Origin: Chloroflexota bacterium
Lineage (GTDB): Bacteria > Chloroflexota > Dehalococcoidia > SM23-28-2 > RBG-16-64-32
Direction: 5' to 3'
NCBI GenBank assembly: GCA_016190405.1
Contig: JACPQO010000264.1
Coordinates: 1 to 18,513 of the forward strand
DNA: 18,513 nucleotides
Below the pieces are notes generated by a model, which saw nothing but the letters and a program-made list of their open reading frames with translations, was not told where the DNA came from and did not search any database. How positions within the stretch are numbered: position 1 is the stretch's first letter; every line of letters starts with the position of its first letter. Below, in pieces: positions 5,959 to 17,191 of this stretch. The translations under genes were made by a program, and so were the position numbers.

Positions 5959-6675
5959 CTAAGGGCTGGCGGGCAGCGCGGTAAAGATTTGTGACGGTTG
6001 GAACAATCGGCCCGACGATAGCCGCCGCTGAAGTACATCCGCGAGGCGAACGGCGAGGCGCTCGCCGGCCTCACGCGCGGTCGGGGCGCTGCCCAGCAGC
6101 GCCGCCATAGACGTCACCCCCCGGTCGGCGATGCCACAGGGGACGATGCGCTGGAACCAGGCTAGGTCCACATCCACGTTCAGGGCCAGGCCGTGGCTGG
6201 TCACCCAGCCGCCTTCGGTGCCCCGGGGCCGGCTGACTCGCACGCCGATGGCGGCGATCTTGTCGCCGCGGACCCAGACGCCGGTGAGGCCGGCCTCCCG
6301 GTGGGCGGCGATAGCATAGCCGGCGAGGGTGCGGATGACCGCCTCTTCCAGGGCACGTACGTAGCCAACGACGCTCAGATCCGCAGCGCGCAGGTCGATG
6401 ACGGGATAGGCGATGAGCTGGCCGGGGCCGTGGAACGTTATGTCACCGCCGCGGTCGCTGGCGATGACAGGCGCGCCCAGGGAAGCCTCGGGCAGCCGCA
6501 GGTGGACGCCGGCGCCACGGCGGCCGGTGGTATACACGGGTGGGTGCTCCAGGAGGAGCAGGGTGTCCGGGACCTCGCCGGCGGCGCGGCGGGCGGCGAT
6601 CTCGCGCTGAAGGCGCCAAGCCTCCTCGTATTCGACCCGGCCCAGCCAAGTGGCCTGGAGAGGGGCCCGCGCCAT
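5959..6675 (-). CDS. lipB: Octanoyl-ACP:protein N-octanoyltransferase LipB
   Basis: Transfers the octanoyl group from acyl carrier protein to the lipoyl-domain lysine of E2-type proteins, the first step of de novo lipoylation; LipA would then insert sulfur. The 238-residue protein has RGGDITFHGPGQLIAYP (75-91), the lysine of GDKIAAIGVR (K139), SHGLALNV (160-167) and the nucleophilic cysteine C180 in PCGI. The start chosen is ATG 6675, which overlaps the E2 stop codon by one base (TGATG), an arrangement typical of translational coupling; TTG 6678 just upstream is possible but less likely. Its position directly after E2 matches its role, since the E2 lipoyl domain is the expected substrate. No lipA is present in the window. 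Confidence 0.97.
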   Translation of the reverse strand: MARAPLQATWLGRVEYEEAWRLQREIAARRAAGEVPDTLLLLEHPPVYTTGRRGAGVHLRLPEASLGAPVIASDRGGDITFHGPGQLIAYPVIDLRAADLSVVGYVRALEEAVIRTLAGYAIAAHREAGLTGVWVRGDKIAAIGVRVSRPRGTEGGWVTSHGLALNVDVDLAWFQRIVPCGIADRGVTSMAALLGSAPTAREAGERLAVRLADVLQRRLSSGRLFQPSQIFTALPASP

Positions 6676-7922
6676 CAATCGATGCCCGTCTCGGGGCCGA
6701 AGGCCTCCAGACGCCGCTTGACCTCGCCCAGGAAGGCGCCGGCCTGGGCGCCGTCCAGGATGCGGTGGTCGAAGGAGAGACAGAGGGTGACCACGGACCG
6801 CACGGCTATGGCGTCGTCGGCCACGACGACCGGCCGTTTGCTGATCGCCTCCAGGCTGATGATGGCGGCCTGGCCCTGGTTGATGATGGGCATGGAGACG
6901 ATGGAGCCGAAGGCGCCCGTGTTGTCTACGGTGAACGTCCCGCCCTGCACGTCGTCCAGCTGCAGCTTGCCAGCCCGCGCGCGCTCCGAGAGGTCATGGA
7001 TGGCGCCGGCCAGGCCGGAGACGCTGAGCCGGTCGGCGTCACGTATGACGGGGACGATGAGTCCGCGCTCCGTAGCCACGGCGATGCCGATGCCGATGCG
7101 CTTCTTGAGCACGATGCGGTCCTCGGCCCAGGAGGCGTTCAGGTAGGGGTGCGCCGGCAGGGACTGGGCGACCGCGTGCACGGCGAACGGCAGGTACGTC
7201 AGGTCGAAGCCGTGCCGCTGGCGAAAGGCCTCCTTCAGAGCCTGCCGGAGCGCCACCAGGCCGGTGACGTCGGCGTCCATGGCCAGCCAGGCGTGGGGAG
7301 CGCTGAACTTGGAGGCCGCCATGCGCCGGGCGATGGTGCGGCGAATGGCGGTCAGGGCGACCGCTTCCTCTTCGCCGGGTGCCTCGGCCGGCGGGGCCTC
7401 GGGCCGGGCCGCGGCGGGCGCAGGCGCGATCTTGCCCCCGGCTGCCGCGCGGACGTCATCTTCGACGATGCGACCGCCCGGGCCGCTACCCGCGACCTGC
7501 GCCAGGTCCACGCCCAGCTCCTGGGCCAGACGCCGCACGCGGGGCGTGGCCCGCTGCCGCTCGGCCGGCGCACCGCGCCCGGCGGGGGCCGCCTTCGGCG
7601 GCTCCTTCGGGGCCTCAGCCGGCGCGGCCTCCGCAGGCTCTTCGCGGGGTACGGGTGGCGCCGCCTCGGCAGGCACCTCGCCAGCCACCTCCTCGATGAC
7701 GGCCAGCGCCTCGCCGACGACTACCGTGGCCCCCTCCTGGGCCAGGATCTCCTTCAGCGTGCCAGAGACGGGGGACGGCAGCTCCACGTTCACCTTGTCG
7801 GTGTTAATCTCGACGATCGGCTCGTACTTGTCGACGCGCTCGCCGGGCCGCTTGAGCCAGCGCTCGACGGTGCCCTCGGTGACCGTCTCGCCGACCTCCG
7901 GCATCTTCAGGGTAAAGGCCAT
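6675..7922 (-). CDS. 2-oxoacid dehydrogenase E2, dihydrolipoamide acyltransferase
   Basis: The core of a 2-oxoacid dehydrogenase complex: it carries the acyl group on a lipoyl arm and passes it to CoA. The 415-residue protein has one lipoyl domain (about 2-78; lipoylated K43 in INTDKVNVE), an Ala/Pro/Glu-rich flexible linker (about 80-120), a peripheral subunit-binding domain (about 123-160; ATPRVRRLAQELGVDL, GSGPGGRI), a second linker, and the catalytic domain (about 187-415) with the active-site motif DHRILDG (H386, D390). The ATG at 7922 has GGAGGCG 8 bases upstream. It is separated from the E1 genes by a repeat-filled gap and overlaps lipB by one base. Substrate range (branched-chain, pyruvate or other) cannot be read from E2 alone; the E1-alpha sequence favours branched-chain. 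Confidence 0.95.
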   Translation of the reverse strand: MAFTLKMPEVGETVTEGTVERWLKRPGERVDKYEPIVEINTDKVNVELPSPVSGTLKEILAQEGATVVVGEALAVIEEVAGEVPAEAAPPVPREEPAEAAPAEAPKEPPKAAPAGRGAPAERQRATPRVRRLAQELGVDLAQVAGSGPGGRIVEDDVRAAAGGKIAPAPAAARPEAPPAEAPGEEEAVALTAIRRTIARRMAASKFSAPHAWLAMDADVTGLVALRQALKEAFRQRHGFDLTYLPFAVHAVAQSLPAHPYLNASWAEDRIVLKKRIGIGIAVATERGLIVPVIRDADRLSVSGLAGAIHDLSERARAGKLQLDDVQGGTFTVDNTGAFGSIVSMPIINQGQAAIISLEAISKRPVVVADDAIAVRSVVTLCLSFDHRILDGAQAGAFLGEVKRRLEAFGPETGID

Positions 7923-8265: not shown

Positions 8266-9249
8266 CTAGTACGCCGCTAACTGCCTGATGACGGCGACGA
8301 TCTTCTGTGGGTTGGGCAGGATGTACTCCTCCAGGACGCTGGAGAAGGGGGAGATAGGCACATCCGGAGAGGCCACACGGGTCACCGGCCCGTCGAGGTA
8401 GTCGAACGCTTCCTGAGCGATGACGGCGGCCACCTCGGCGCCGAAGCCGCCGGTCAGGTTGTCCTCGTACACGATCAGCGCCTTGCCGGTCTTCTTGACG
8501 GACTCCAGGACGGTCTCCTTGTCCAGCGGCTTCACGGTGCGCAGGTCGATGACCTCCGCGCTCAAGCCGTCTTCCTTCGCCACGGTCTCGGCGGCGGCCA
8601 GCGAGTGGTGGAGCATCATCCCGTAGGTGATGAGGGTCATGTCCTTGCCTGGGCGCTTGACCTCCGCCTGGCCGATGGGGATAGTGTACTCCTCATCGGG
8701 GACCTCCTGGCGGTACAGCCGGTACGCCTTCTTGTGCTCCAGGAAGACAACGGGATTAGGGTCGCGGATGGCGGACTTCAGCAGGCCCTTGGCGTCGTAG
8801 GGGGTGGCCACGCAGACCACCTTGAGGCCGGGGACGTGGGCGTAGAAGGCCTCGATGCTCTGGGAGTGATAGGGGCCGCCGTGGATGCCGGCACCGTACG
8901 GCGTGCGCACGACGATGGGGCAGTTCCAGGCGCCGTTGGAGCGGTAGTGCAGCCGGGCCGCCTCGCTGACGATCTGGTCCAGGGCCGGGTGGCTGAAGTC
9001 GGCGAACTGGATCTCGGCGATGGGGATGATGCCGTTCAGGGAGGCGCCGATGGCCACCCCCACGATGGCGGACTCGGCCAGCGGCGTGTCGATGCAGCGG
9101 TCGGGCCCGAACTCATCGCGCAACCCCTGCGTAGCGCGGAAGACGCCGCCCTCGCCGACGTCCTCGCCCATGACGATGATCCGCTCGTCGCGCTTCATCT
9201 CTTCGGACATGGCGTCCCGTACGGCTTCGACCATAGTCTTCTCGGCCAT
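8266..9249 (-). CDS. 2-oxoacid dehydrogenase E1 component, beta subunit
   Basis: With E1-alpha it forms the thiamine-diphosphate-dependent decarboxylase that acylates the E2 lipoyl arm. The 327 residues match the normal family length. The N-terminal pyrimidine-binding domain contains VMGEDVGEGGVFRATQGL (with the cofactor-activating glutamate in the TPLAESAIVG segment), FADFSHPALDQIVSEAA and RTPYGAGIHGGPYHSQS. The C-terminal transketolase-like domain has ITYGMMLHHSLAAAE, EVIDLRTVKPLDKETV and YEDNLTGGFGAEVAA. The ATG at 9249 is preceded by a purine-rich ribosome site, and only two bases separate it from the E1-alpha stop. The region IHGGPYHSQSIEAFYAHVPG is typical of branched-chain and pyruvate enzymes of the heterotetrameric class. 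Confidence 0.95.
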   Translation of the reverse strand: MAEKTMVEAVRDAMSEEMKRDERIIVMGEDVGEGGVFRATQGLRDEFGPDRCIDTPLAESAIVGVAIGASLNGIIPIAEIQFADFSHPALDQIVSEAARLHYRSNGAWNCPIVVRTPYGAGIHGGPYHSQSIEAFYAHVPGLKVVCVATPYDAKGLLKSAIRDPNPVVFLEHKKAYRLYRQEVPDEEYTIPIGQAEVKRPGKDMTLITYGMMLHHSLAAAETVAKEDGLSAEVIDLRTVKPLDKETVLESVKKTGKALIVYEDNLTGGFGAEVAAVIAQEAFDYLDGPVTRVASPDVPISPFSSVLEEYILPNPQKIVAVIRQLAAY

Positions 9250-9251
9250 CG

Positions 9252-10262
9252 CTATCCCCCCCTCTCCTCGACGTAGACGTGCTCCAGGGCCGTCTCCGGG
9301 TCCGGCGAAGGCGCCTTCTCGGCGTATTCGGTGGCGTCATCGACCTCCTGGGCGGCGTTCTTCTGGAAATCCTCCAGTGCGCGGGCGTTGGCTACGTCGT
9401 GCCCCGTGAGCCAGGCCTCGAACCGCTTGATGGGGTCCTTCTTCGCCCACTCCTCCACCTCCTCGCGAGAGCGATACCGGCGGTCGTCGTCGTCGCTGGA
9501 GTGGGGCACCAGGCGGTAGGTCTTGGCCTCGATGAATGTGGGCCCCTCGCCTTTGCGGGCCCGCTCGTGGACCTCTTTGGCCGCCGCGTACACGGCCAGC
9601 AGGTCGTTGCCGTCCACGGTGACGCCAGGGAAGCCGTAGCCCTGGGCGCGCACGGCCACGTTCTCCACCGCCGCCTGCTTGCTCCAGGGCACGGAGATGG
9701 CGTACTGGTTGTTCTCGCAGACGAAGATCACGGGCAGCTTGTGGATGCCGGCGAAGTTCATCGCCTCGTGGCAGTCGCCGGTACTGGTGGCGCCGTCGCC
9801 GAAGTAGACCGCCGTCACCTCGTCGGTGCCCCGCAGCTTGGAGGCGAAGGCGATGCCGGCGGCGTGGGGAAGTTGGGTGGCCACCGGCGCCGAGCCGCTA
9901 ACGATGCGCAGCTTGGGGTCGCTGAAGTGGCTGGGCATGTTGCGACCGCCACCGCTGATGTCCTCTGCCCTGGCGAAGAAGGCCAGCAGCAGGTCGCGCG
10001 GCGTCTGCCCGATGGTCAGCGCGACGCCGATATCGCGGTAGTAGGGCACCACCCAGTCGAGTCCGGGCCGGAGGACAGAGGCCGTCCCCACCTGCGCCGC
10101 CTCGTGGCCCTCGCCGCTGATGGCGAAGGGGCCCTTCCCCATGCGGTTGAGCATGCGCTCCCGCTGGGCCACGGCCCGCGCCAGCAGCATTCTGTAGTAC
10201 ATGTCCAGTAGCTGATTCTTGGTCAGCCCCATGGCGCCGGAGATCTCCTTCACCGAAACCAA
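9252..10262 (-). CDS. 2-oxoacid dehydrogenase E1 component, alpha subunit (branched-chain type)
   Basis: Binds thiamine diphosphate and decarboxylates the 2-oxoacid. In 336 residues it shows GEGHEAAQVG (50-59), the substrate-loop segment VVPYYRDIGVALTIG (71-85), NMPSHFS (108-114), the cofactor motif running from GDG 155-157 to NN 184-185, and a loop YRLVPHSSDDDDRRYR (249-264) equivalent to the phosphorylated loop of mitochondrial branched-chain enzymes. YYRD and MPSHFS favour a branched-chain over a pyruvate enzyme; the true substrate is inferred. The start is TTG 10262, supported by GAGGAGGAGG ending 8 bases upstream. It follows lpdA after 16 bases and precedes E1-beta by two bases, so E3, E1-alpha and E1-beta form one operon. 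Confidence 0.93.
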   Translation of the reverse strand: MVSVKEISGAMGLTKNQLLDMYYRMLLARAVAQRERMLNRMGKGPFAISGEGHEAAQVGTASVLRPGLDWVVPYYRDIGVALTIGQTPRDLLLAFFARAEDISGGGRNMPSHFSDPKLRIVSGSAPVATQLPHAAGIAFASKLRGTDEVTAVYFGDGATSTGDCHEAMNFAGIHKLPVIFVCENNQYAISVPWSKQAAVENVAVRAQGYGFPGVTVDGNDLLAVYAAAKEVHERARKGEGPTFIEAKTYRLVPHSSDDDDRRYRSREEVEEWAKKDPIKRFEAWLTGHDVANARALEDFQKNAAQEVDDATEYAEKAPSPDPETALEHVYVEERGG

Positions 10263-10278: not shown

Positions 10279-11661
10279 TCACCAGTAGATGCTGATTCCC
10301 GCCGAAAGCTGGGCCGCCTCGCCCAGCACCTCGCTCAGGGTCGGATGCGGATGGATGTTGCTTCCCACCTCCCACGCGGACGCTTCCAGAAAGCGGGCCA
10401 GAGACGCCTCCGAGATCAGCTCCGAGGCGTGGTGGCCGATGATGTGCGCCCCCAGCAGGTCGCCGGAGCCGGCGTCATAGACGAGCTTGGCGAACCCCTC
10501 CGGCTCGTCCTGGATCAGGGCCATAGCATTATAGCGGAACGAGAAGCGCTGGCTCTTGATGTTGCGCCCGGCCTTGCGGGCCTCCTGCTCGGTCAGCCCG
10601 ACGGCCGCCACCTGAGGGCGGCTGTAGGTCACGCGGGGCGCGCGGCCGTAGTCCAGCGGTTGGACCTCCTTCCCAGCGATCGACTCGGCGGCCAGGAACC
10701 CCTCGGCGGCGGCCACGTGGGCCAGCAGCAGCCCGCCGATGGCGTCGCCGACGGCATACACCGTTGGCTCCTCGGTGCGATATCTCTCGTCCACGGCGAT
10801 GAAGCCCCGGTCCAGCTTGACGCCGGTGTTCTCCAGCCCCAGGCCGTCGGTGACGGCTTCGCGGCCCACGGCTACGAGGACTGCGTGGCCCTGGATTGTC
10901 TTCTCCTGGCCTTCCTGCTGGACCGTGAGCTCCACCATGTTGTCGTACGTGCGCGTCCCTTCAGGTAAGACGCGGGCCGAGGTCATGATGTTGGCGCCAC
11001 GCGCGGCCAGCGCCTTGGCCAACGCCTTCCCCACGTCGGCGTCCTCCAGGGGAAGGATGGTGGGCATCATCTCGACCAGGCTGACCTGGGAACCGATATC
11101 CAGGTAGAAGGAGGCGAACTCGGCGCCGACAGCGCCCGCCCCCACGATGACGATGGACTGGGGTGGCTCCGGCAGCTCCAGCAGGTAGTCGGAGTTCAGC
11201 ACCCGGACGCCGTCGGTGGGGAGGCCCGGCAGCTCCTTGGGCCGGGAACCGGTGGCCAGGACGACGTGCCTGGCGTTGAGGGTTCGCCCGTTGGCCGAAA
11301 CCTGGGTGGGAGATAGAAGGCTGGCCTGCCCCTCTATGATCTCGATCTTGTGCTTCTGGATGACGGAGCGCAGGCTCTTGTGGAGGGTGTCGACGACGTG
11401 CCGCTTGCGGGCGGCGACGGCCGCGTAGTCCAGGGCGATGTTATCGGCGCGGACGCCGAAGGTGTTGCTCTTGCGGACCAGAGAGAGGGTCTCGGCGGTC
11501 TCCAGGAGGACCTTGGTGGGGATGCAACCCTTGTGCAGGCAAGTGCCGCCGACCTTGTCGCGCTCCACGATGGCGGCGGTGAGGCCCAATTGGGTGGCCC
11601 TAATGGCGGCCGTGTAGCCGCCGCTGCCGCCGCCGATCACTACAAGGTCGAAATCGTCCAC
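10279..11661 (-). CDS. lpdA: Dihydrolipoamide dehydrogenase (E3)
   Basis: A flavoprotein that re-oxidises the dihydrolipoyl arm of E2 and reduces NAD+. In 460 residues it has the N-terminal FAD fold VVIGGGSGGYTAAIRA (7-22), the redox pair C41/C46 in GGTCLHKGCIPTK, an NAD-binding fold at about 168-195 (IVIVGAGAVGAEFASFYLDI), the second FAD segment VYAVGDAIGG, and the C-terminal active-site NIHPHPTLSE with H439 and E444. All catalytic residues are present. The start is GTG 11661, with a purine-rich AGGAAGGCAGG upstream. It is the first gene after the strong promoter at 11747-11776; E3 more often sits last in such operons, so its leading position is slightly unusual and would suit supply to other lipoyl complexes too. 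Confidence 0.96.
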   Translation of the reverse strand: MDDFDLVVIGGGSGGYTAAIRATQLGLTAAIVERDKVGGTCLHKGCIPTKVLLETAETLSLVRKSNTFGVRADNIALDYAAVAARKRHVVDTLHKSLRSVIQKHKIEIIEGQASLLSPTQVSANGRTLNARHVVLATGSRPKELPGLPTDGVRVLNSDYLLELPEPPQSIVIVGAGAVGAEFASFYLDIGSQVSLVEMMPTILPLEDADVGKALAKALAARGANIMTSARVLPEGTRTYDNMVELTVQQEGQEKTIQGHAVLVAVGREAVTDGLGLENTGVKLDRGFIAVDERYRTEEPTVYAVGDAIGGLLLAHVAAAEGFLAAESIAGKEVQPLDYGRAPRVTYSRPQVAAVGLTEQEARKAGRNIKSQRFSFRYNAMALIQDEPEGFAKLVYDAGSGDLLGAHIIGHHASELISEASLARFLEASAWEVGSNIHPHPTLSEVLGEAAQLSAGISIYW

Positions 11662-11843: not shown

Positions 11844-12998
11844 ATGAGTACAAGAGTCGCCATCGTCGGCATCGGCCACACGGCGTTCCGGGCTACGAGT
11901 CCCGGCGTCTCCTACAAGGAGATGATGTTCGAGGCCGCCACCAAGGCCTACGCCGACGCGGGGCTTGACGCCCGCAAGGAGATCGACTCGTTCCTGAGCT
12001 GCTCCGAGGACCTCAACGAGGGCACCAGCATCTTCGACGAGTACGTGCCCGACCAGATCGGCGGCGCCCAACGCCCCGTCTACACCGTGGGCGGCGACGC
12101 TATTCAGGGCATGGCCACGGCCTACATGCAGATCCTCAGCGGCGTGGCCGGCGTCGTTGCCGTCGAGGCGCACAGCAAGGCCTCCAACATCCTGACGCCG
12201 GAGCGGGTGCACGCCCTGGCCCTCGACCCCACCTTCGTGCGGCCCCTGGATGTGCACCCGGAGTTCGTGGCCGGCCTGGAGGCGGACGCCTACCTACGGG
12301 CCACGGGCTGCGGCCGTGAGCAGTGCGCCCACGTGGTGGCCAAAAACCACCGTAACGCCCTGTCGAACCCTTCGGCGGCCTACGGCGCCGCCATCGACCC
12401 GGAGGACGTGCTGGCCTCGCCGCCGGCCTTCGAGCCTCTGTCGCAGCTGGACGTCAGCAGCAGCGCCGACGGCGGCACGGTCATCGTCCTGGCCTCGCAG
12501 GAGCGGGCGAAGGCCCTGGGCGGGGCGGCGGTTTGGGTCCGCGGCATTGGCTGGAGCAATGGCAGCTTCTCCCTATCCAGTCGGGACTGGGCGCAGGCCG
12601 AATACGCGCGGCTGGCCGCCAAGATGGCCTACCGGATGGCGGGGATCAAGGAGCCGCGGCGCGAGGTGCAGTTCGCGGAGGTGGACGACACCTACTCCTA
12701 CAAGGAGCTCCAGCACCTGGAGGCGCTGGGCCTGTTCGAGCCCGGGAGAGCCGGTCCAGCAACCAAGGAGGGGCTGACGGGGCGCGACGGCCGGTTCCCG
12801 GTGAACGTCTCGGGCGGCAGCCTGGGCGTGGGACGGCTGCTGGAGGCCAGCGGCGCCCAGCGGGTCATCGAAGTCGTGCGGCAGCTGCGCGGCGAGGCCG
12901 GGCCCCGCCAGCTCCCGAACGTGCACGTGGGGCTGGCCCAGTCCTGGCGCGGTGTGCCCACGGCCAGCGGCGCGGTGGTGGTTCTGAGCAATGCGTAG
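11844..12998 (+). CDS. Thiolase-fold protein (SCP2-thiolase/lipid-transfer-like) lacking the canonical catalytic residues
   Basis: 384 residues with the thiolase fold: N-terminal VAIVGIGHTAF (5-15) and the C-terminal half ending QSWRGVPTASGAVVVLSN. In classical thiolases a nucleophilic Cys lies before the first long buried helix; here that segment reads VGGDAIQGMATAY (82-94), with no Cys. The HDCF-type motif is replaced by EVDDTYSYKEL (279-289), and the C-terminal GHP-type histidine by NVSGGSLGVGR (321-331). A normal Claisen thiolase reaction is therefore unlikely. A role as aldolase or as structural partner of the next gene's product is possible, because thiolase-fold proteins paired with DUF35 proteins include the steroid side-chain aldolase Ltp2. 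ATG 11844 lacks a clear ribosome site; a lone TAGACT (11814-11819) may be the -10. Confidence 0.85.
   Translation: MSTRVAIVGIGHTAFRATSPGVSYKEMMFEAATKAYADAGLDARKEIDSFLSCSEDLNEGTSIFDEYVPDQIGGAQRPVYTVGGDAIQGMATAYMQILSGVAGVVAVEAHSKASNILTPERVHALALDPTFVRPLDVHPEFVAGLEADAYLRATGCGREQCAHVVAKNHRNALSNPSAAYGAAIDPEDVLASPPAFEPLSQLDVSSSADGGTVIVLASQERAKALGGAAVWVRGIGWSNGSFSLSSRDWAQAEYARLAAKMAYRMAGIKEPRREVQFAEVDDTYSYKELQHLEALGLFEPGRAGPATKEGLTGRDGRFPVNVSGGSLGVGRLLEASGAQRVIEVVRQLRGEAGPRQLPNVHVGLAQSWRGVPTASGAVVVLSNA
12624..12658 (+). repeat. 35-base exact direct repeat, copy 1 (inside first thiolase-like gene)
   Basis: Identical base for base to 13889-13923 in the second thiolase-like gene. It encodes MAYRMAGIKEP, just before the position of the lost HDCF motif. 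The surrounding gene sequence is much more diverged, so this is either a recent conversion tract or strong constraint. Confidence 0.9.
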
Positions 12999-13005
12999 TA
13001 GGATG

Positions 13006-13071
13006 CTGGAGGTTAGAGGTTGGATGGTGGAGGCGGGGTCTAGCTTCCAACTTCCAACCTCCAATCTCCAG
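13006..13071. repeat. Imperfect long hairpin repeat between the thiolase-like genes
   Basis: CTGGAGGTTAGAGGTTGGA at the left end is nearly the reverse complement of the right end TTCCAACCTCCAATCTCCAG, leaving a loop of about 25-30 bases. The internal TTCCAACTTCCAACC shows short tandem repetition. This is the look of a mobile palindromic intergenic element inserted between two co-directional genes. It lies between the stop of the first and the TTG start of the second. Confidence 0.65.
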
Positions 13072-13096
13072 GCAGCGGTCTCCCGGAGGGGCGGTC

Positions 13097-14260
13097 TTGG
13101 CCTCCCGTAGGGTAGCCGTCGTCGGGGCGGGCATCACCAAGTTCATGCGGCGCGCCCTGGAGACTGGCCCGGAGCTGGCCTGGGAGGCGTCCAGCATGGC
13201 CCTGGCGTCCTGCGGCCTGGGCCTGAAGGACATCGACGGCGTGGTCATCGGCTCGGCGCCGGACGCCTTCGATGGCGTACACATGAAGGCGGAATTCCTG
13301 GCCGATGGCGCCGGCGGTTGGGGCCGGCCGGTCACCCGGCCCTACGCCGGCGGCGGCACCGGCGTCCTGCTGCCCGTCCACGGCTGGATGCACATCGCCT
13401 CGGGCCTGTTCGACACCTGTCTGGTGGTGGCCGAGGAGAAGATGTCCACGGCCCACCCGCACCCGCAGGGGGCCTTCATCACCATCTTCGACAATATCCT
13501 GGAGCGGCCTCTGGAGCCCAACCTGATCTGGATCTTCGCCCTGGAGATGCGGCGCTACATGGAGGCGTACGGCATCACCAAGGAGGAGATCGCCCTGGTT
13601 TCCGTCAAGAACAAACGCAACGCCATGGACCACCCGGCGGCGCAGGTGGCCGGCGACATCACGGTGCAGGACGTGCTGGAGTCCGAGCTGATGGTCTGGC
13701 CGGTGAACCGGCTGGACATTAGCCCGGTGAGCGACGGCGCCGTGGCCCTGGTCCTGGCCTCGGAGGAGAAGGCGCGCCGCATCACCGATAAGCCGGTGTG
13801 GATCGAGGGTGTGGGCTGGAACCTGGACACCACCTACTGGACCAACCGCGACCTGGCCTACCCCGAGTACGTCGAGCGCGCGGCTCGTATGGCCTACCGG
13901 ATGGCGGGGATCAAGGAGCCGCGCCAGGAGATCAACATCGCGGAGCCCTACGACCCGTTCTCGTACAAGGAGCTGCACCACCTGGAGGGGCTCATGCTGT
14001 GCGGCAAGGGCGAGGCGCCCAAGATCACCGCCGACGGCGTCACGCAGCGCAGCGGCGACCTGCCGGTCTGCCCCTCCGGCGGGCTGCTGGGCGTGGGCAA
14101 CCCCATCGCGGCGGCGGGTCTGATGAAGGTGTCCGAGATCTTCTGGCAGTTGCGGGGCGAGGCGGGCGCCCGCCAGGTGCCCGGCCAGCCCAAGAAGGGG
14201 CTGGCCCAGGCGTGGGGCGACCTGATGCAGGTAGGCACGGTCATAGTGATGGGGGTGTAG
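13097..14260 (+). CDS. Second thiolase-fold protein lacking canonical catalytic residues
   Basis: 387 residues from TTG 13097, chosen because GGAGGGG lies 7 bases upstream and because any earlier start would translate the intergenic hairpin or the preceding gene. The thiolase fold is seen from VAVVGAGITKF (6-16) to QAWGDLMQVGTVIVMG. The segment where the nucleophilic Cys is expected reads YAGGGTGVLLPVHG (83-96). The HDCF position is IAEPYDPFSYKEL (281-293), and the GHP position is CPSGGLLGVGNP (325-336). The YDPF motif is like that of lipid-transfer/Ltp2-type aldolases, whose catalysis depends on tyrosines, so this subunit is the better candidate for activity. It is a diverged tandem paralogue of the gene upstream; the two may form a heteromer with the DUF35 proteins that follow. 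Confidence 0.87.
   Translation: MASRRVAVVGAGITKFMRRALETGPELAWEASSMALASCGLGLKDIDGVVIGSAPDAFDGVHMKAEFLADGAGGWGRPVTRPYAGGGTGVLLPVHGWMHIASGLFDTCLVVAEEKMSTAHPHPQGAFITIFDNILERPLEPNLIWIFALEMRRYMEAYGITKEEIALVSVKNKRNAMDHPAAQVAGDITVQDVLESELMVWPVNRLDISPVSDGAVALVLASEEKARRITDKPVWIEGVGWNLDTTYWTNRDLAYPEYVERAARMAYRMAGIKEPRQEINIAEPYDPFSYKELHHLEGLMLCGKGEAPKITADGVTQRSGDLPVCPSGGLLGVGNPIAAAGLMKVSEIFWQLRGEAGARQVPGQPKKGLAQAWGDLMQVGTVIVMGV
13889..13923 (+). repeat. 35-base exact direct repeat, copy 2 (inside second thiolase-like gene)
   Basis: Matches 12624-12658 exactly and encodes the same MAYRMAGIKEP residues in the same frame. Flanking codons differ at once on both sides. Confidence 0.9.
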
Positions 14261-14283
14261 ATGCGTGCGTTAGGGATGCAACA

Positions 14284-14303
14284 CCGCAGGTTGAAACCTG
14301 CGG
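14284..14303. repeat. Palindromic repeat, copy 1
   Basis: ccgcaggttgaaacctgcgg is a near-perfect palindrome lying 24 bases after the second thiolase-like gene. Its reverse complement is exactly the copy at 14403-14422. Confidence 0.85.
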
Positions 14304-14321
14304 CATCGGCGGCGGATGAAG

Positions 14322-14341
14322 CCGCTGGTTTTAACCCGCGG
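14322..14341. repeat. Palindromic repeat, degenerate middle copy
   Basis: ccgctggttttaacccgcgg is a diverged version of the copies on either side, within the same 182-base gap. Confidence 0.65.
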
Positions 14342-14402
14342 TGGGGCTTCCAACATTGTTCGCACCGCACCGCCGGGGATGCGGGATCAATCCGGACTGA
14401 TG

Positions 14403-14422
14403 CCGCAGGTTTCAACCTGCGG
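14403..14422. repeat. Palindromic repeat, copy 2 (inverted)
   Basis: ccgcaggtttcaacctgcgg is the exact reverse complement of 14284-14303. The pair could close a large loop just upstream of the first DUF35 gene, or each could form its own hairpin. Confidence 0.85.
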
Positions 14423-14442
14423 TCGAGGGCCCCTGTCTTCCC

Positions 14443-14949
14443 ATGACACGCCTTTCGCGCGACCAACTGCCTGGCATGCCCCTGAGCGACGCCCAGGTGC
14501 GCCGCCGCGAGGTCCTCACCCACGAGCTGGAGCCGCAGGCGCGCTACGCCTGGGACACCGGCGTGGCCATCGGTCGCTTTCTGGAGGGACTCAAGGAGGG
14601 ACATCTGCTGGCCCGTCGCTGCCACAAATGTCAGCGCGTGCTGCTGCCGCCGCGCATGTTCTGCGAGCAGTGCTTTCGCCCCACCGACGAATGGGTGACC
14701 GTCCCCGACACCGGCAAAGTGAACACTTACTCCATCTCCCATATCCGCTGGGACGCCAGCCCTCTGGAGGAACCTATCGTCATCGGCGTTATCGAGATCG
14801 ACGGCACCAGCCACGGCGGCCTCCTCCACTACCTGGGCGGGATCGACGGCGACGACGTTCGCATCGGGATGAAGGTGCGGGCGGTCTGGAAGCCCGCGGC
14901 CGAGCGGGAGGGCTCCATCCTGGACATTCTCCACTTCCGGCCCGCCTAG
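14443..14949 (+). CDS. Zn-ribbon/OB-fold (DUF35) protein, first copy
   Basis: 168 residues. A rubredoxin-like zinc ribbon (C60, C63, C74, C77: RRCHKCQ and FCEQCF) is followed by an OB fold (about 85-165) ending AEREGSILDILHFRP, the normal DUF35 ending. Family members pair with thiolase-fold enzymes and shape the acyl-CoA binding site, as in archaeal thiolase/HMG-CoA synthase complexes, benzoylsuccinyl-CoA thiolase BbsAB and the aldolase Ltp2-ChsH2. Placement after two thiolase-like genes strongly supports the same role here. About 45 residues precede the zinc ribbon and include a helix that may contact the partner. The start is ATG 14443, with only a poor ribosome site. Its stop codon overlaps the ribosome site of the second DUF35 gene. 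Confidence 0.92.
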   Translation: MTRLSRDQLPGMPLSDAQVRRREVLTHELEPQARYAWDTGVAIGRFLEGLKEGHLLARRCHKCQRVLLPPRMFCEQCFRPTDEWVTVPDTGKVNTYSISHIRWDASPLEEPIVIGVIEIDGTSHGGLLHYLGGIDGDDVRIGMKVRAVWKPAAEREGSILDILHFRPA

Positions 14950-14957
14950 GAGTCGAT

Positions 14958-15419
14958 ATGGGTTCCCTGGAGCACATCGAGCGCGTCACCGACCTGAGGG
15001 CCTGGCCGGGCGACTTCCCGGTCAGCCACCTGTACACCATGGGGCTGGCCGGCGAGCGCTTCCTGCGCGAGATCAAGGAGAAGGGGCGCTTTCTGGGTGC
15101 CCGCTGCGAGCCGTGTGGCTACACCTACCTGCCGCCGTCCCTCTTCTGCCCCCGCTGCTTCCGCCGCCTGGAGGACTGGCGGGAGGTGGGCCCCGCCGGC
15201 GTGGTGCGGGCCCGCACAACCGTGCACATAGACCTGGACGGGCGGCGGCTGGGTCAGCCGCAGGGCGTGGCCTTGATTCAGCTGGACGGCGCCGATGGGC
15301 TGCTGGTCCACTTCGTCGAAGACGGGGTAGGGGTTGGCCGGCGGGTGACGGCGGTGTTCAAGGAGCCGGCGGCCCGCGAAGGCTCCATCCTGGACGTGGA
15401 GTGCTTCCGGGCGCTCTAG
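14958..15419 (+). CDS. Zn-ribbon/OB-fold (DUF35) protein, second copy
   Basis: 153 residues with zinc-ribbon cysteines C50, C53, C64 and C67 (RCEPCG and FCPRCF) and an OB fold ending AREGSILDVECF, parallel to the first copy. The start is ATG 14958: AGGAG at 14948-14952 overlaps the stop of the preceding gene and is 5 bases from the ATG, so the two are probably translationally coupled. Upstream the frame is open far back, but that reading crosses the palindromic gap and the first DUF35 gene and is not credible. The N-terminus differs from that of the first copy, which suggests each DUF35 protein is matched to a different thiolase-like partner. The OB-fold core GVALIQLDGADGLLVHFVE is well conserved. 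Confidence 0.92.
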   Translation: MGSLEHIERVTDLRAWPGDFPVSHLYTMGLAGERFLREIKEKGRFLGARCEPCGYTYLPPSLFCPRCFRRLEDWREVGPAGVVRARTTVHIDLDGRRLGQPQGVALIQLDGADGLLVHFVEDGVGVGRRVTAVFKEPAAREGSILDVECFRAL

Positions 15420-15434
15420 GGCGAACGCCGGGAC

Positions 15435-15462
15435 GCTACGCAGGCTGAAGGCCTGCGGCTAC
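15435..15462. repeat. Palindromic repeat, related fourth copy
   Basis: CGCAGGC (15439-15445) and GCCTGCG (15451-15457) form a perfect seven-pair stem with a five-base loop, flanked by GCTA and GCTAC. It resembles the CCGCAGG palindromes at 14284-14422 and lies just before the ribosome site of the acyl-CoA dehydrogenase gene. Confidence 0.75.
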
Positions 15463-15477
15463 TCTGGAAGGAAGAAG

Positions 15478-16644
15478 ATGGACTTCCGGTTCAGCGAATC
15501 CGAAGAGCGCCTCCGACGGGAGGCCTGCGACTTCCTGACCCAGGAGTTGCGAACCACCCACACGTCGGACCCGGCGCCCATGCCGCCCGGCTACATGCCG
15601 GCCCGCGATTTCGAGCGCAAGCTGGGCGAGCGGGGCTGGCTGGCCTTAAGCTGGCCACCCGATTACGGGGGTGGGGGCCGCCCCGTCATCGAGCAGTTCA
15701 TCGTGGAGGAGGAGGTGGCGCTGCACGGGGGCCCGGCCAGCGACGCCATCGCCCGGGTCATCGTGGCGCCCATCCTTCTGGCCTGCGGCAGCGAGGAGCA
15801 GAAGCGCGTCTATCTCCCCCGCCTGGCCCGCGGCGAGATCACCTTCTGCCTGGGCTACACGGAGCCGGAGTCGGGCTCCGACCTGGCGTCGCTCCAGACC
15901 AGGGCCGTCCGCGAGGGGGACGACTACGTCATCAACGGGCGCAAGGTGTTCACCAGCGGCGCCGAGTCCAGCGAGTACTGCTGGCTGGCGGCGCGCACCC
16001 ATCCTGACGCGCCCAAGCACGCCGGTCTGTCCGTGTTCATCGTGCCCATGGACTCGCCCGGCGTTGAGGTAAGGCCCCTGGTTAACCTGCTGGGCGAGGG
16101 CTGGTTCAACGAGGTGGTGTTCGAGAACGTGCGCGTGCCCGCCGCCGAGCGCGTCGGCGGCGAGAACGGCGGCTGGGAGGTCCTGACCTCGGCTCTGGGG
16201 GTCGAGCGGATCACCATCTACCGGACCTTCTTGCACCTGCGCGCGCTGTGGGCGCTGGCGCGCTACGCCCGGACGCCCGTCGATGGCGCCAGGCTGTGGG
16301 ACAACGCTGAGACCCGCCAGCGCCTGGCCCAGCTGCGCATCGACTTCGAGGTGGCCCGCCTCCTCCTGTACCGGGCCGTGCAGATGCACAGCGGGGGACA
16401 GGAGTTCCGGGCCCAGGCGGCGATGGTGAAGCTGTTCAACACGGAGCTGGTGCAGCGGCTGTACCAGACAGGGGTGGCCTTGCTTGGTCCCTACGGGGCG
16501 CTGATGGAGGGACCGCGGACTCTATGGAACGGCGCCATCGGCCACGCCTACCTGTCGGCGGTGCAGGAGACCATCGGCGCCGGTACGTCCGAGGTGCAGC
16601 GGGAGATCATCGCCCTGCGCGGCCTGGGCCTACCGCGCGGCTGA
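15478..16644 (+). CDS. Acyl-CoA dehydrogenase
   Basis: A flavoenzyme that introduces a 2,3 double bond into an acyl-CoA. 388 residues, a normal length. The N-terminal helical domain covers about 1-120. The middle beta domain has CLGYTEPESGSDLASLQTR (124-142) and YVINGRKVFTSGAE (150-163). The C-terminal helical domain ends with IGAGTSEVQREIIALRGLG (366-384). The usual MCAD-type catalytic Glu before GTS is absent (GAGTS). E243 in LGVERITIYR sits where isovaleryl-CoA dehydrogenase and LCAD carry theirs, so the protein is probably active with a branched or long substrate. ATG 15478 has GGAAGGAAG upstream. It is the last gene of the thiolase-like/DUF35 cluster and may form the substrate of that system. 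It is convergent with the SRPBCC gene, four bases away. Confidence 0.93.
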   Translation: MDFRFSESEERLRREACDFLTQELRTTHTSDPAPMPPGYMPARDFERKLGERGWLALSWPPDYGGGGRPVIEQFIVEEEVALHGGPASDAIARVIVAPILLACGSEEQKRVYLPRLARGEITFCLGYTEPESGSDLASLQTRAVREGDDYVINGRKVFTSGAESSEYCWLAARTHPDAPKHAGLSVFIVPMDSPGVEVRPLVNLLGEGWFNEVVFENVRVPAAERVGGENGGWEVLTSALGVERITIYRTFLHLRALWALARYARTPVDGARLWDNAETRQRLAQLRIDFEVARLLLYRAVQMHSGGQEFRAQAAMVKLFNTELVQRLYQTGVALLGPYGALMEGPRTLWNGAIGHAYLSAVQETIGAGTSEVQREIIALRGLGLPRG

Positions 16645-16648
16645 GGCG

Positions 16649-17086
16649 TCAGGTCTCCAGCGCCTCCTTCAGCTTTTCCAGAGAGGCCTCCAGTTCGTTC
16701 TGGAAGAAGCGGGCCATCATGAACCAGGCCATGAAGGCTCCCAGAACCCCGAACGGCGGCTTATAGTTCACCGTCCATTCCACGCGCGTACCGCCGTTGA
16801 TCGGGATGAAGGTCATCCTCTCGTCGGCTTCCAGATAGCCGGTGAAATGACGGGCAAAGGCCTCAGCGGGCTCATACTCGGTCCAGGTGCCCTCCAGCAG
16901 GCGCGCCTGGGGGCCCACTTTGAACTTCGTGCGGTCGGTCGTGCCGGCGCTCTTGCCGTCGCCGGAGGTGATGACGATCTCCTGGATCCAGGTGGTCCAT
17001 TCGGGCTGCTTTGAGACGTCCGCCGCCAGAGCGAAGACGTGCTCGCGCGGGACATCGATGTCGACGACCGCCTTAAGGCGCGGCAT
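16649..17086 (-). CDS. SRPBCC (START-like) family protein, ligand-binding fold
   Basis: 145 residues starting MPRLKAVVDIDVPREHVFAL, the typical first strand and helix of the SRPBCC fold (polyketide cyclase/dehydrase or CoxG-like). DVSKQPEWTTWIQEI matches the conserved DV..WP.W region. Later strands (GGTRVEWTVNYKPP, about residues 97-110) and a long C-terminal helix (FFQNELEASLEKLKEALE) complete a hydrophobic cavity. The ligand cannot be predicted. The start is ATG 17086, with a strong GAGAGGAGGT ending 6 bases upstream; a longer in-frame reading begins at 17179 but would cover the promoter. It has its own promoter at 17123-17152, back to back with that of the tRNA gene. Confidence 0.88.
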   Translation of the reverse strand: MPRLKAVVDIDVPREHVFALAADVSKQPEWTTWIQEIVITSGDGKSAGTTDRTKFKVGPQARLLEGTWTEYEPAEAFARHFTGYLEADERMTFIPINGGTRVEWTVNYKPPFGVLGAFMAWFMMARFFQNELEASLEKLKEALET

Positions 17087-17122
17087 ACGAGTACCTCCTC
17101 TCGGACTGTTACCGGCGGCACC

Positions 17123-17152
17123 AATATCGGTAAGGCGGGGGTGCCATGTCAA
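17123..17152 (-). promoter_or_regulatory. Sigma70-type promoter of the SRPBCC gene
   Basis: On the minus strand, a perfect TTGACA (17152-17147) is followed by an 18-base spacer and GATATT (17128-17123). Transcription would begin about 30 bases upstream of the ATG at 17086, leaving room only for the strong ribosome site. Confidence 0.65.
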
Positions 17153-17163
17153 GGCGAAGCGGG

Positions 17164-17191
17164 TTGCGCGGCTTGTCATGGGCGCTATAAT
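17164..17191 (+). promoter_or_regulatory. Promoter of tRNA-Gly
   Basis: A perfect TATAAT at 17186-17191 lies 12 bases before the tRNA. TTGCGC at 17164-17169 with a 16-base spacer is a partial -35 box. The first transcribed base would be only a few bases before the mature tRNA end. Confidence 0.65.

What the first reader, a model, noticed from the sequence alone, without database searches (positions are those of the whole stretch)
11844..16644. Two thiolase-fold proteins without catalytic residues, two DUF35 partners and an acyl-CoA dehydrogenase: candidate new CoA-dependent system
Both thiolase-like proteins have lost the nucleophilic Cys (GGDAIQG; AGGGTGV), the HDCF-type motif (DDTY; PYDPF) and the GHP-type His (VGR; VGNP). 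Losing all three in both paralogues, while keeping the fold and a dedicated pair of DUF35 proteins, points to a different chemistry such as retro-aldol cleavage (as in Ltp2-ChsH2) or to a scaffold role. With the acyl-CoA dehydrogenase it could shorten a branched, cyclic or terpenoid/steroid-like side chain. No hydratase is present in the window.
Basis: partly seen in the sequence, partly recalled or inferred. Interest (0 to 1): 0.8.

Follow-up and report, generated by a model that had tools for sequence, protein, structure and literature searches.

The report
Conserved Cys-less double-thiolase/DUF35 complex
Four neighbouring genes encode what looks like one multi-part enzyme, found in the same order in archaea and bacteria, whose two thiolase-shaped subunits have lost the thiolase machinery; one carries a different, strictly conserved active site that resembles carbon-chain-cutting aldolases, so the common label 'acetyl-CoA acetyltransferase' is probably wrong.

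Summary
T1 (11844-12998) and T2 (13097-14260) are thiolase-fold proteins without the Cys/His/His residues; D1 and D2 are zinc-ribbon/OB (DUF35) proteins. They form a conserved four-gene cassette: 58 of 63 distinct loci with room show T1-T2-D1-D2 in one order and strand; T2 passes its family cut-off in 98 of 1236 genomes of six phyla, seeds included. The lost residues are not decay. In 199 of 199 readable T2 sequences HDCF is YDPF and the GHP His is Asn; the Cys position is Gly in 200 of 200. T1 is more variable and faster evolving, so T2 is probably catalytic. Recurring neighbours are acyl-CoA dehydrogenases, acyl-CoA ligases, CoA-transferases and 2-oxoacid dehydrogenases; seven of 69 loci also hold a complete thiolase. 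Best reading: a heteromeric C-C lyase (probably retro-aldol) in branched acyl-CoA catabolism. Reaction and substrate are inferred. A D2 homologue has an orphan structure, SSO2064 (3irb).

The parts
11844..12998 (+). T1: thiolase-fold subunit without Cys/His/His; conserved D281-D282, E334, W368-R369
   Evidence: (best NF004722, 477 bits, below its 516 cut-off)
13097..14260 (+). T2: thiolase-fold subunit, probable catalytic subunit; G86 (Cys position), Y285-D-P-F (HDCF position), N335 (GHP His), H122, W373-G-D375-L-M-Q378
   Evidence: (NF004721, 671 bits, cut-off 455)
14443..14949 (+). D1: DUF35 (zinc ribbon CHKC...CEQC + OB fold) partner
14958..15419 (+). D2: second DUF35 partner (CEPC...CPRC); same cassette position as the SSO2064/3irb homologue of a Thermoproteota locus
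15478..16644 (+). acyl-CoA dehydrogenase; MCAD-type Glu replaced (IGAGT), Glu in the GVER helix instead
   Evidence: meaning of the two Glu positions recalled
10279..11661 (-). context: dihydrolipoyl dehydrogenase (E3), divergent from T1
9252..10262 (-). context: 2-oxoacid dehydrogenase E1 alpha
8266..9249 (-). context: 2-oxoacid dehydrogenase E1 beta
6675..7922 (-). context: 2-oxoacid dehydrogenase E2 (lipoyl acyltransferase)

Best explanation
T1, T2, D1 and D2 form one heteromeric enzyme. D1 and D2 bridge the thiolase-fold subunits and help to shape the CoA/acyl site, as DUF35 proteins do in Ltp2-ChsH2, Sal-Shy, thiolase/HMGCS and PhlABC. T2 is the catalytic subunit: with Gly where the nucleophilic Cys was, it cannot form an acyl-enzyme there; Tyr285 (YDPF) takes the role of catalytic base and cleaves the C-alpha/C-beta bond of a 3-hydroxyacyl-CoA by retro-aldol, giving an acyl-CoA and an aldehyde or ketone; another invariant residue (D375 or H122 are candidates) protonates the enolate. 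T1 is a diverged, probably non-thiolytic partner that completes the complex and tunes it. The enzyme ends a short pathway in which a 2-oxoacid dehydrogenase or oxidoreductase, an acyl-CoA ligase or a CoA-transferase makes a short, probably branched acyl-CoA and the ACAD desaturates it. Shown: cassette conservation, loss and replacement of the triad, gene context. Inferred: complex formation, retro-aldol chemistry, which subunit is active, the general acid, the substrate.
For: Order T1-T2-D1-D2 on one strand in 58 of 63 distinct loci with room. Invariant replacement residues in T2: G86 200/200; Y285, D286, P287, F288, N335 199/199; H122 199/200; D375 198/199. Y285 aligns with the HDCF His; Ltp2 uses Tyr294 of YDHF and Sal Tyr302 of YDCY there, and Sal has Gly at the nucleophile position. 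T2 Y285 and N335 are 50 residues apart, the same spacing as Ltp2 Tyr294/Tyr344 and Sal Tyr302/Gln352 (numbers); no residue alignment to Ltp2 was printed. T1 and T2 are two single-origin clades; T2 branches are mostly shorter and T1 residues vary more. Complete thiolases (Cys loop, HDxF, GHP) lie in the fetched stretch of 7 of 69 loci. ACAD in the same-strand run in 27 of 69, AMP ligase 14, CoA-transferase pair 5, E1 alpha/beta 3, 2-oxoacid:ferredoxin oxidoreductase 2; classical 3HCDH within about 10 kb on the same contig in 2 of 56 genomes, read by eye.
Against: The second catalytic residue of Ltp2 or Sal is missing in T2 (Asn335, Pro287). T2 is nearer to archaeal thiolases and BbsB than to Ltp2. 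A crotonase-type hydratase was labelled near the cassette in only 9 of 69 loci (MaoC types were not in the label set). In L012 the cassette follows a 3HCDH-ECH-ACAD-mutase set, which suggests a 3-oxo intermediate there; in G292 (L074) a 3HCDH/ECH gene lies about 4 kb away on the other strand. 42 of 69 loci have no ACAD in the same-strand run. The window's ACAD is nearest to 4x28 and 6wy8, recalled as steroid-pathway enzymes, which does not favour a short-chain substrate. No complex, ligand or activity could be tested; the E1 and mutase hits do not fix a substrate.
Confidence: 0.5

Rival explanations
1. An enzyme of other chemistry on a CoA thioester: T2 and/or T1 act as acyltransferase, decarboxylase, hydratase or isomerase without a Cys nucleophile (as TbSLP slowly decarboxylates malonyl-CoA). 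The complex is active but not an aldolase.
For: TbSLP also has YDCF and only a very low malonyl-CoA decarboxylase activity, so Tyr at this place does not prove retro-aldol chemistry. The second aldolase residue is absent in T2; T1 has its own conserved acidic set (D281/D282/E334). Crotonase-type hydratases are rare beside the cassette.
Against: Gly at Cys plus Tyr at the HDCF His is the combination reported for Sal. Recurring neighbours are those of catabolic acyl-CoA chains that end in C-C cleavage.
Confidence: 0.25
2. A thiolase of unusual mechanism: the complex cleaves a 3-oxoacyl-CoA, using a non-Cys route or a Cys that is not conserved in place.
For: Database names say acetyl-CoA acetyltransferase. 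In L012 the cassette stands where the thiolase of a 3HCDH-ECH-ACAD set would stand.
Against: No Cys conserved in either family; nucleophile, HDCF and GHP positions all replaced; complete thiolases coexist in the fetched stretch of 7 of 69 loci.
Confidence: 0.13
3. A non-catalytic CoA-binding scaffold: T1-T2-D1-D2 only tethers or channels acyl-CoA between ACAD and other enzymes.
For: Both triads are lost; T1 is variable; PhlA is a precedent of a thiolase-superfamily partner without the key residues, with Gly at the Cys position.
Against: T2 keeps a near-invariant polar set at the canonical catalytic positions over 199-200 sequences, more than a scaffold needs; PhlABC still has an active PhlC.
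Confidence: 0.12

Closest known systems
Ltp2-ChsH2(DUF35) and Sal-Shy(DUF35) steroid side-chain aldolases (6ok1, 9myr; PMC12329534, outline, abstract, section 9 and first part of section 11 read)
   Different: Second catalytic residue absent (Pro287/Asn335 in place of Sal Cys304 or Ltp2 Tyr344); two different thiolase-fold genes and two DUF35 genes; no MaoC hydratase in the window ORFs scanned and no steroid genes recognised; sequence nearer to archaeal thiolases.
PhlABC acyltransferase (5m3k; PMC6392133, passages read)
   Same: Two thiolase-superfamily subunits plus DUF35 protein; one subunit (PhlA) lacks the catalytic Cys and has Gly there.
   Different: PhlC keeps Cys88; PhlA is HMGCS/FabH-like; one DUF35 gene, not two; makes C-acyl bonds in an antibiotic pathway.
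Archaeal acetoacetyl-CoA thiolase/HMGCS/DUF35 complex (6esq) and benzoylsuccinyl-CoA thiolase BbsAB (7pyt, 7pxp)
   Different: Both keep Cys, HDxF and a His at the GHP position in the printed alignments.
SSO2064 (3irb), DUF35 of Sulfolobus solfataricus (PMC2954200, abstract, passages and section 3.4 read)
   Same: Matches the second DUF35 gene of a Thermoproteota cassette over its full length (274 bits).
   Different: Described in 2010 as a lone DUF35 protein with a predicted acyl-CoA role; section 3.4 does not discuss a neighbouring thiolase pair or its lost triad.

Membership tests
thiolase (thiolytic, Cys/His/His) | nucleophilic Cys in the N-terminal loop | tested here: not met
   T2 G86 in 200/200; T1 has a 3-residue deletion in the loop; no conserved Cys in either family
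thiolase (thiolytic, Cys/His/His) | HDxF His and GHP His | tested here: not met
   T2 Y285 and N335; T1 D281 and R331 (a variable position, H in 55 of 196 T1 rows)
thiolase superfamily (fold) | thiolase fold | tested here: met
   Pfam; models and structure matches
Ltp2/Sal thiolase-fold aldolase | catalytic Tyr at the HDCF His position (YDHF/YDCY) | tested here: met
   met in T2 (Y285, 199/199); not met in T1 (D281)
Ltp2/Sal thiolase-fold aldolase | second catalytic residue (Ltp2 Tyr344 or Sal Cys304) | tested here: not met
   T2 P287 at the Sal Cys304 place of the motif; N335 at the Tyr344 place by equal 50-residue spacing from the Tyr; no residue alignment to Ltp2 was printed
Ltp2/Sal thiolase-fold aldolase | DUF35 partner encoded next door | tested here: met
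   D1 and D2; two DUF35 segments downstream in 59 of 63 loci
Ltp2/Sal thiolase-fold aldolase | retro-aldol cleavage of a 3-hydroxyacyl-CoA | not testable with these tools
   needs an enzyme assay
PhlABC-type multicomponent acyltransferase | one of the two thiolase-fold subunits keeps the acyl-carrying Cys | tested here: not met
   both T1 and T2 lack it
NCBIfam NF004721 (PRK06065, thiolase domain-containing protein) | score over the curated cut-off of 455 bits | tested here: met
   T2 670.8 bits
NCBIfam NF004722 (PRK06066, thiolase domain-containing protein) | score over the curated cut-off of 516 bits | tested here: not met
   T1 477.4 bits; still its best family by far

The most novel reading that the evidence does not exclude
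The cassette is an unrecognised class of heteromeric C-C lyase, widespread in archaea and some bacteria, in which T2 does a Tyr-based retro-aldol cleavage of beta-branched 3-hydroxyacyl-CoAs that cannot be oxidised to a 3-oxo form and so cannot be thiolysed (for example 3-hydroxyisovaleryl-CoA to acetone and acetyl-CoA), while T1, with its own acidic site, has become a second enzyme such as the hydratase that feeds it.
Probability: 0.12. Interest if true: 0.85.

Novelty: new variant of a known kind. Interest (0 to 1): 0.62.

Why it matters
Genes of this kind are named acetyl-CoA acetyltransferase or thiolase in several sources, yet neither subunit can be an ordinary thiolase. If the complex is a C-C lyase, it would give archaea and some bacteria a way to break branched acyl-CoAs without the 3-oxo/thiolase step, and pathway reconstructions that count these genes as thiolases would be wrong. 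Sulfolobus acidocaldarius, described as genetically tractable, carries a T2 over the family cut-off (its T1, D1 and D2 were not looked at), so knock-outs and co-purification are possible, and the structure of a D2 homologue is already solved.

Tried and rejected
Whole genome of the window: none held. Thiolase with a hidden conserved Cys: rejected. Steroid side-chain degradation as the default role: not supported by neighbours, none recognised as steroid genes, though the window's ACAD is nearest to 4x28 and 6wy8 and the CoA-transferase has weak IpdA-type hits (that 6co6 is IpdA is recalled). Formaldehyde route (retro-aldol of 3-hydroxyisobutyryl-CoA): suggested by a Fae-HPS fusion next to the L005 cassette, seen in 1 of 69 loci under my label, so not relied on. 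Mutase link (methylmalonyl- versus isobutyryl-CoA mutase): NCBIfam cannot tell them apart. CoA-transferase pair: nearest to glutaconate CoA-transferase, then 5mzw and 6co6-type chains, undecided. Ltp2 correspondence by residue offset of the ranges: dropped on checking, because chain index and residue number may differ; replaced by the 50-residue spacing. Literature: no paper on the four-gene cassette in the listings; of 814 papers the 15 listed hold only 'ketothiolase', no Saci tag; the Ltp2 paper itself is not held, so Ltp2 residues come from PMC12329534. PMC6449355 does not name the genes searched in its main text.

Limits of the counts: one search used loci up to L106, T2 with at least 350 bits and T1 with at least 230 bits to the window proteins; 11 diverged T1-like rows are and would lower T1 conservation. 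One T2 row (L008, truncated) has gaps at the motif positions. The T2 alignment A1 behind holds 3 complete thiolases among 51 rows. The 69 loci are not phylogenetically independent; many contigs end within a few kb, so absence of a neighbour is weak evidence. The nonoverlap ORF picker hides some D1 or D2 genes in GC-rich loci; one search recounts the cassette by tblastn. The labels rest on BLAST to a hand-picked reference set without MaoC or 3HCDH, so unlabelled neighbours may include missed enzymes. A CxxC-CxxC regex found the zinc motif in 109 of 127 DUF35-labelled ORFs; the misses were not resolved. L006 (one of 84 loci) was dropped for lack of a T2 over 350 bits. L137 and L138 were fetched and not used.
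Full report
What is there. The region 11844-16644 holds five intact genes on the + strand: T1 (11844-12998), T2 (13097-14260, TTG start), D1 (14443-14949), D2 (14958-15419) and an acyl-CoA dehydrogenase, ACAD (15478-16644). T1 and T2 are 40% identical over 388 columns. D1 and D2 each carry a CxxC...CxxC zinc ribbon and an OB fold. Divergently upstream lies a complete lipoyl-dependent 2-oxoacid dehydrogenase (E3, E1 alpha, E1 beta, E2) followed by lipB. The window is probably from a Dehalococcoidia-like Chloroflexota: most near homologues are unnamed, and some close named ones carry that label.

Active sites. Against solved thiolases, T2 has G86 at the nucleophilic Cys, Y285 at the His of HDCF, P287 at its Cys and N335 at the GHP His. 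T1 has a three-residue deletion at the Cys loop, D281 at the HDCF His and R331 at the GHP His. In 200 T2 sequences (window, 79 distinct from loci, 120 from the protein database) the tallies are G86 200/200, Y285/D286/P287/F288 199/199, N335 199/199, W373 199/199, D375 198/199, H122 199/200. In 196 T1 sequences: D281 186 (E in 8), D282 191, E334 151 (D in 43), W368 192, R369 191, whereas the GHP-His position is variable (Q 59, H 55, N 28, R 15). Eleven further T1-like rows, ten of them from Thermoproteota searches, differ more (for example SEPF in place of DDTY and Tyr or Asn at the GHP-His position), while the T2 motif showed no exception among the readable T2 rows. No Cys is invariant or 90% conserved in the sampled alignments of either family.

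A conserved cassette. One scan of named genome contigs gave 25 loci from Bathyarchaeota, Archaeoglobi, Geothermarchaeota, Nitrososphaera, Chloroflexi and others. Phylum searches with NF004721 over its cut-off found 59 of 300 genomes around the Nitrososphaera seed, 7 of 301 around Chloroflexi, 4 of 199 around the Symbiobacterium-named seed, 16 of 196 around Archaeoglobus, 2 of 46 around the Bdellovibrio-named seed and 10 of 194 around the Euryarchaeota RBG_16_67_27 seed (seed genomes count among the hits, so each phylum was bound to show at least one). Of 14 control genomes only Sulfolobus acidocaldarius passed the cut-off. After merging near-identical loci, 69 distinct T2 loci remain; 63 have room for the whole cassette, and 58 of these have T1-T2-D1-D2 in the same order and strand. 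The exceptions are L075 and L080 (no DUF35 found beside T2), L008 (T2 truncated, no DUF35), L134 (rearranged) and L089 (no T1 detected directly upstream). In a 54-row tree T1, T2 and complete thiolases each form one group, and T2 branches are mostly shorter than those of T1.

A missing label in the literature. The second DUF35 gene of a Thermoproteota cassette (L026) matches SSO2064 (PDB 3irb) over its full length (274 bits). That structure was described as a lone acyl-CoA-linked DUF35 protein (PMC2954200, abstract, passages and section 3.4 read). SSO2061, a near neighbour by locus-tag number only, is listed as an acetyl-CoA acetyltransferase in one paper's table (PMC3518317, passages). Within my searches no listed paper is about the four-gene cassette.

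Context. In 69 distinct loci the same-strand run around T2 holds an ACAD in 27, an AMP-forming acyl-CoA ligase in 14, an ECH in 7, a CoA-transferase pair in 5, B12 mutase parts in 4, E1 alpha/beta in 3 and a 2-oxoacid:ferredoxin oxidoreductase in 2; within -6.5/+7.5 kb on either strand the counts are 34, 26, 9, 5, 6, 6 and 4. Three loci read E1 alpha-E1 beta-ACAD and then the cassette (L086, L103, L133; L133's T1 is labelled only); L013 and L081 have the oxidoreductase just before T1; L016 and L095 have a Peripla_BP_6 binding protein downstream (a family that I recall as including branched-chain amino acid binders). Complete thiolases (Cys loop, HDxF, GHP) occur in the fetched stretch of seven loci (L004, L005, L025, L077, L078, L106, L134); five of them (L004, L025, L077, L078, L134) show a second DUF35 gene beside the thiolase within the printed range. 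All 56 cassette genomes searched encode 3-hydroxyacyl-CoA dehydrogenase, but within about 10 kb of T2 on the same contig in only two (G008 and G292), read by eye; short contigs could hide others. In G008 (L012) it is part of a 3HCDH-ECH-ACAD-mutase-T1-T2-D1-D2 row, which speaks against a purely 3-oxo-free route there.

ACAD. The window's ACAD lacks the MCAD-type Glu (IGAGT instead of xEGT) and has a Glu in the GVER helix; the ACADs next to Archaeoglobi cassettes (NPER) and one Thermoproteota group (NVER) also have that Glu and lack the EGT motif, while others have IGEGT or IYEGT. That Glu in this helix is the base in isovaleryl-CoA and long-chain dehydrogenases is recalled, not tested. It is a weak hint at beta-branched substrates. 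In the other direction, the nearest solved relatives of the window's ACAD are 4x28 and 6wy8/6wy9, which I recall as steroid side-chain dehydrogenases of actinobacteria; the ACADs beside other cassettes are of several different subfamilies (27-37% to it where aligned).

How it probably works. Sal uses Tyr302 and Cys304, Ltp2 Tyr294 and Tyr344, and Sal has Gly at the nucleophile position (PMC12329534). T2 shares the Tyr and the Gly but not the second residue; an invariant loop residue (D375) or H122 may take the proton role. T2 Y285 and N335 are 50 residues apart, as are Ltp2 Tyr294/Tyr344 and Sal Tyr302/Gln352, so N335 probably takes the Tyr344 place. The likely reaction is retro-aldol cleavage of a 3-hydroxyacyl-CoA by T2, with T1 as partner and D1 and D2 as DUF35 bridges, as in PhlABC, where four PhlB copies mediate the binding of the PhlA and PhlC dimers (PMC6392133, passages). 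By homology T2 is nearer to archaeal thiolases and BbsB than to Ltp2, so an aldolase function would probably have arisen separately. Confidence is high that this is a conserved, non-thiolytic unit and moderate to low for the exact reaction and substrate.

Verdict. Not a thiolase, and not a member of the Ltp2/Sal aldolases by the tested features, though it may work like them. It is a new variant of the thiolase-fold/DUF35 complexes, with two thiolase-fold genes and two DUF35 genes and no nucleophilic Cys in either subunit.

Noticed in passing
window 14283-14423: A 141-bp element with perfect 25-nt terminal inverted repeats lies between T2 and D1: MITE-like, dividing the cassette in this genome.
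   Followed up: partly
window 13006-13071: An imperfect 29-nt inverted repeat (83%, 8-nt loop) lies in the gap between T1 and T2.
   Followed up: no
window 12624-12658 and 13889-13923: T1 and T2 share a 35-bp identical DNA run within a region of about 68% identity: possible gene conversion or constrained codons.
   Followed up: partly
L005 11540-12988: A formaldehyde-activating enzyme/hexulose-phosphate synthase fusion follows the cassette in a Bathyarchaeota genome.
   Followed up: partly
L082-L086, L102, L103, L131-L133: T1 in this Thermoproteota group has SEPF/TEFF-type motifs and Tyr or Asn at the GHP-His position instead of DDTY/R: T1 may have a different role there.
   Followed up: partly
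L012 2858-11367: In a Bdellovibrio-named MAG the order is 3HCDH-ECH-ACAD-B12 mutase large-B12 small-T1-T2-D1-D2.
   Followed up: partly
L100, L101, L122, L124, L092: A two-subunit CoA-transferase (nearest solved relative of the alpha subunit: glutaconate CoA-transferase, then 5mzw) sits beside the cassette in archaeal and bacterial loci.
   Followed up: partly
window 16649-17179: A polyketide-cyclase/SRPBCC-type protein is encoded convergently behind the ACAD.
   Followed up: no
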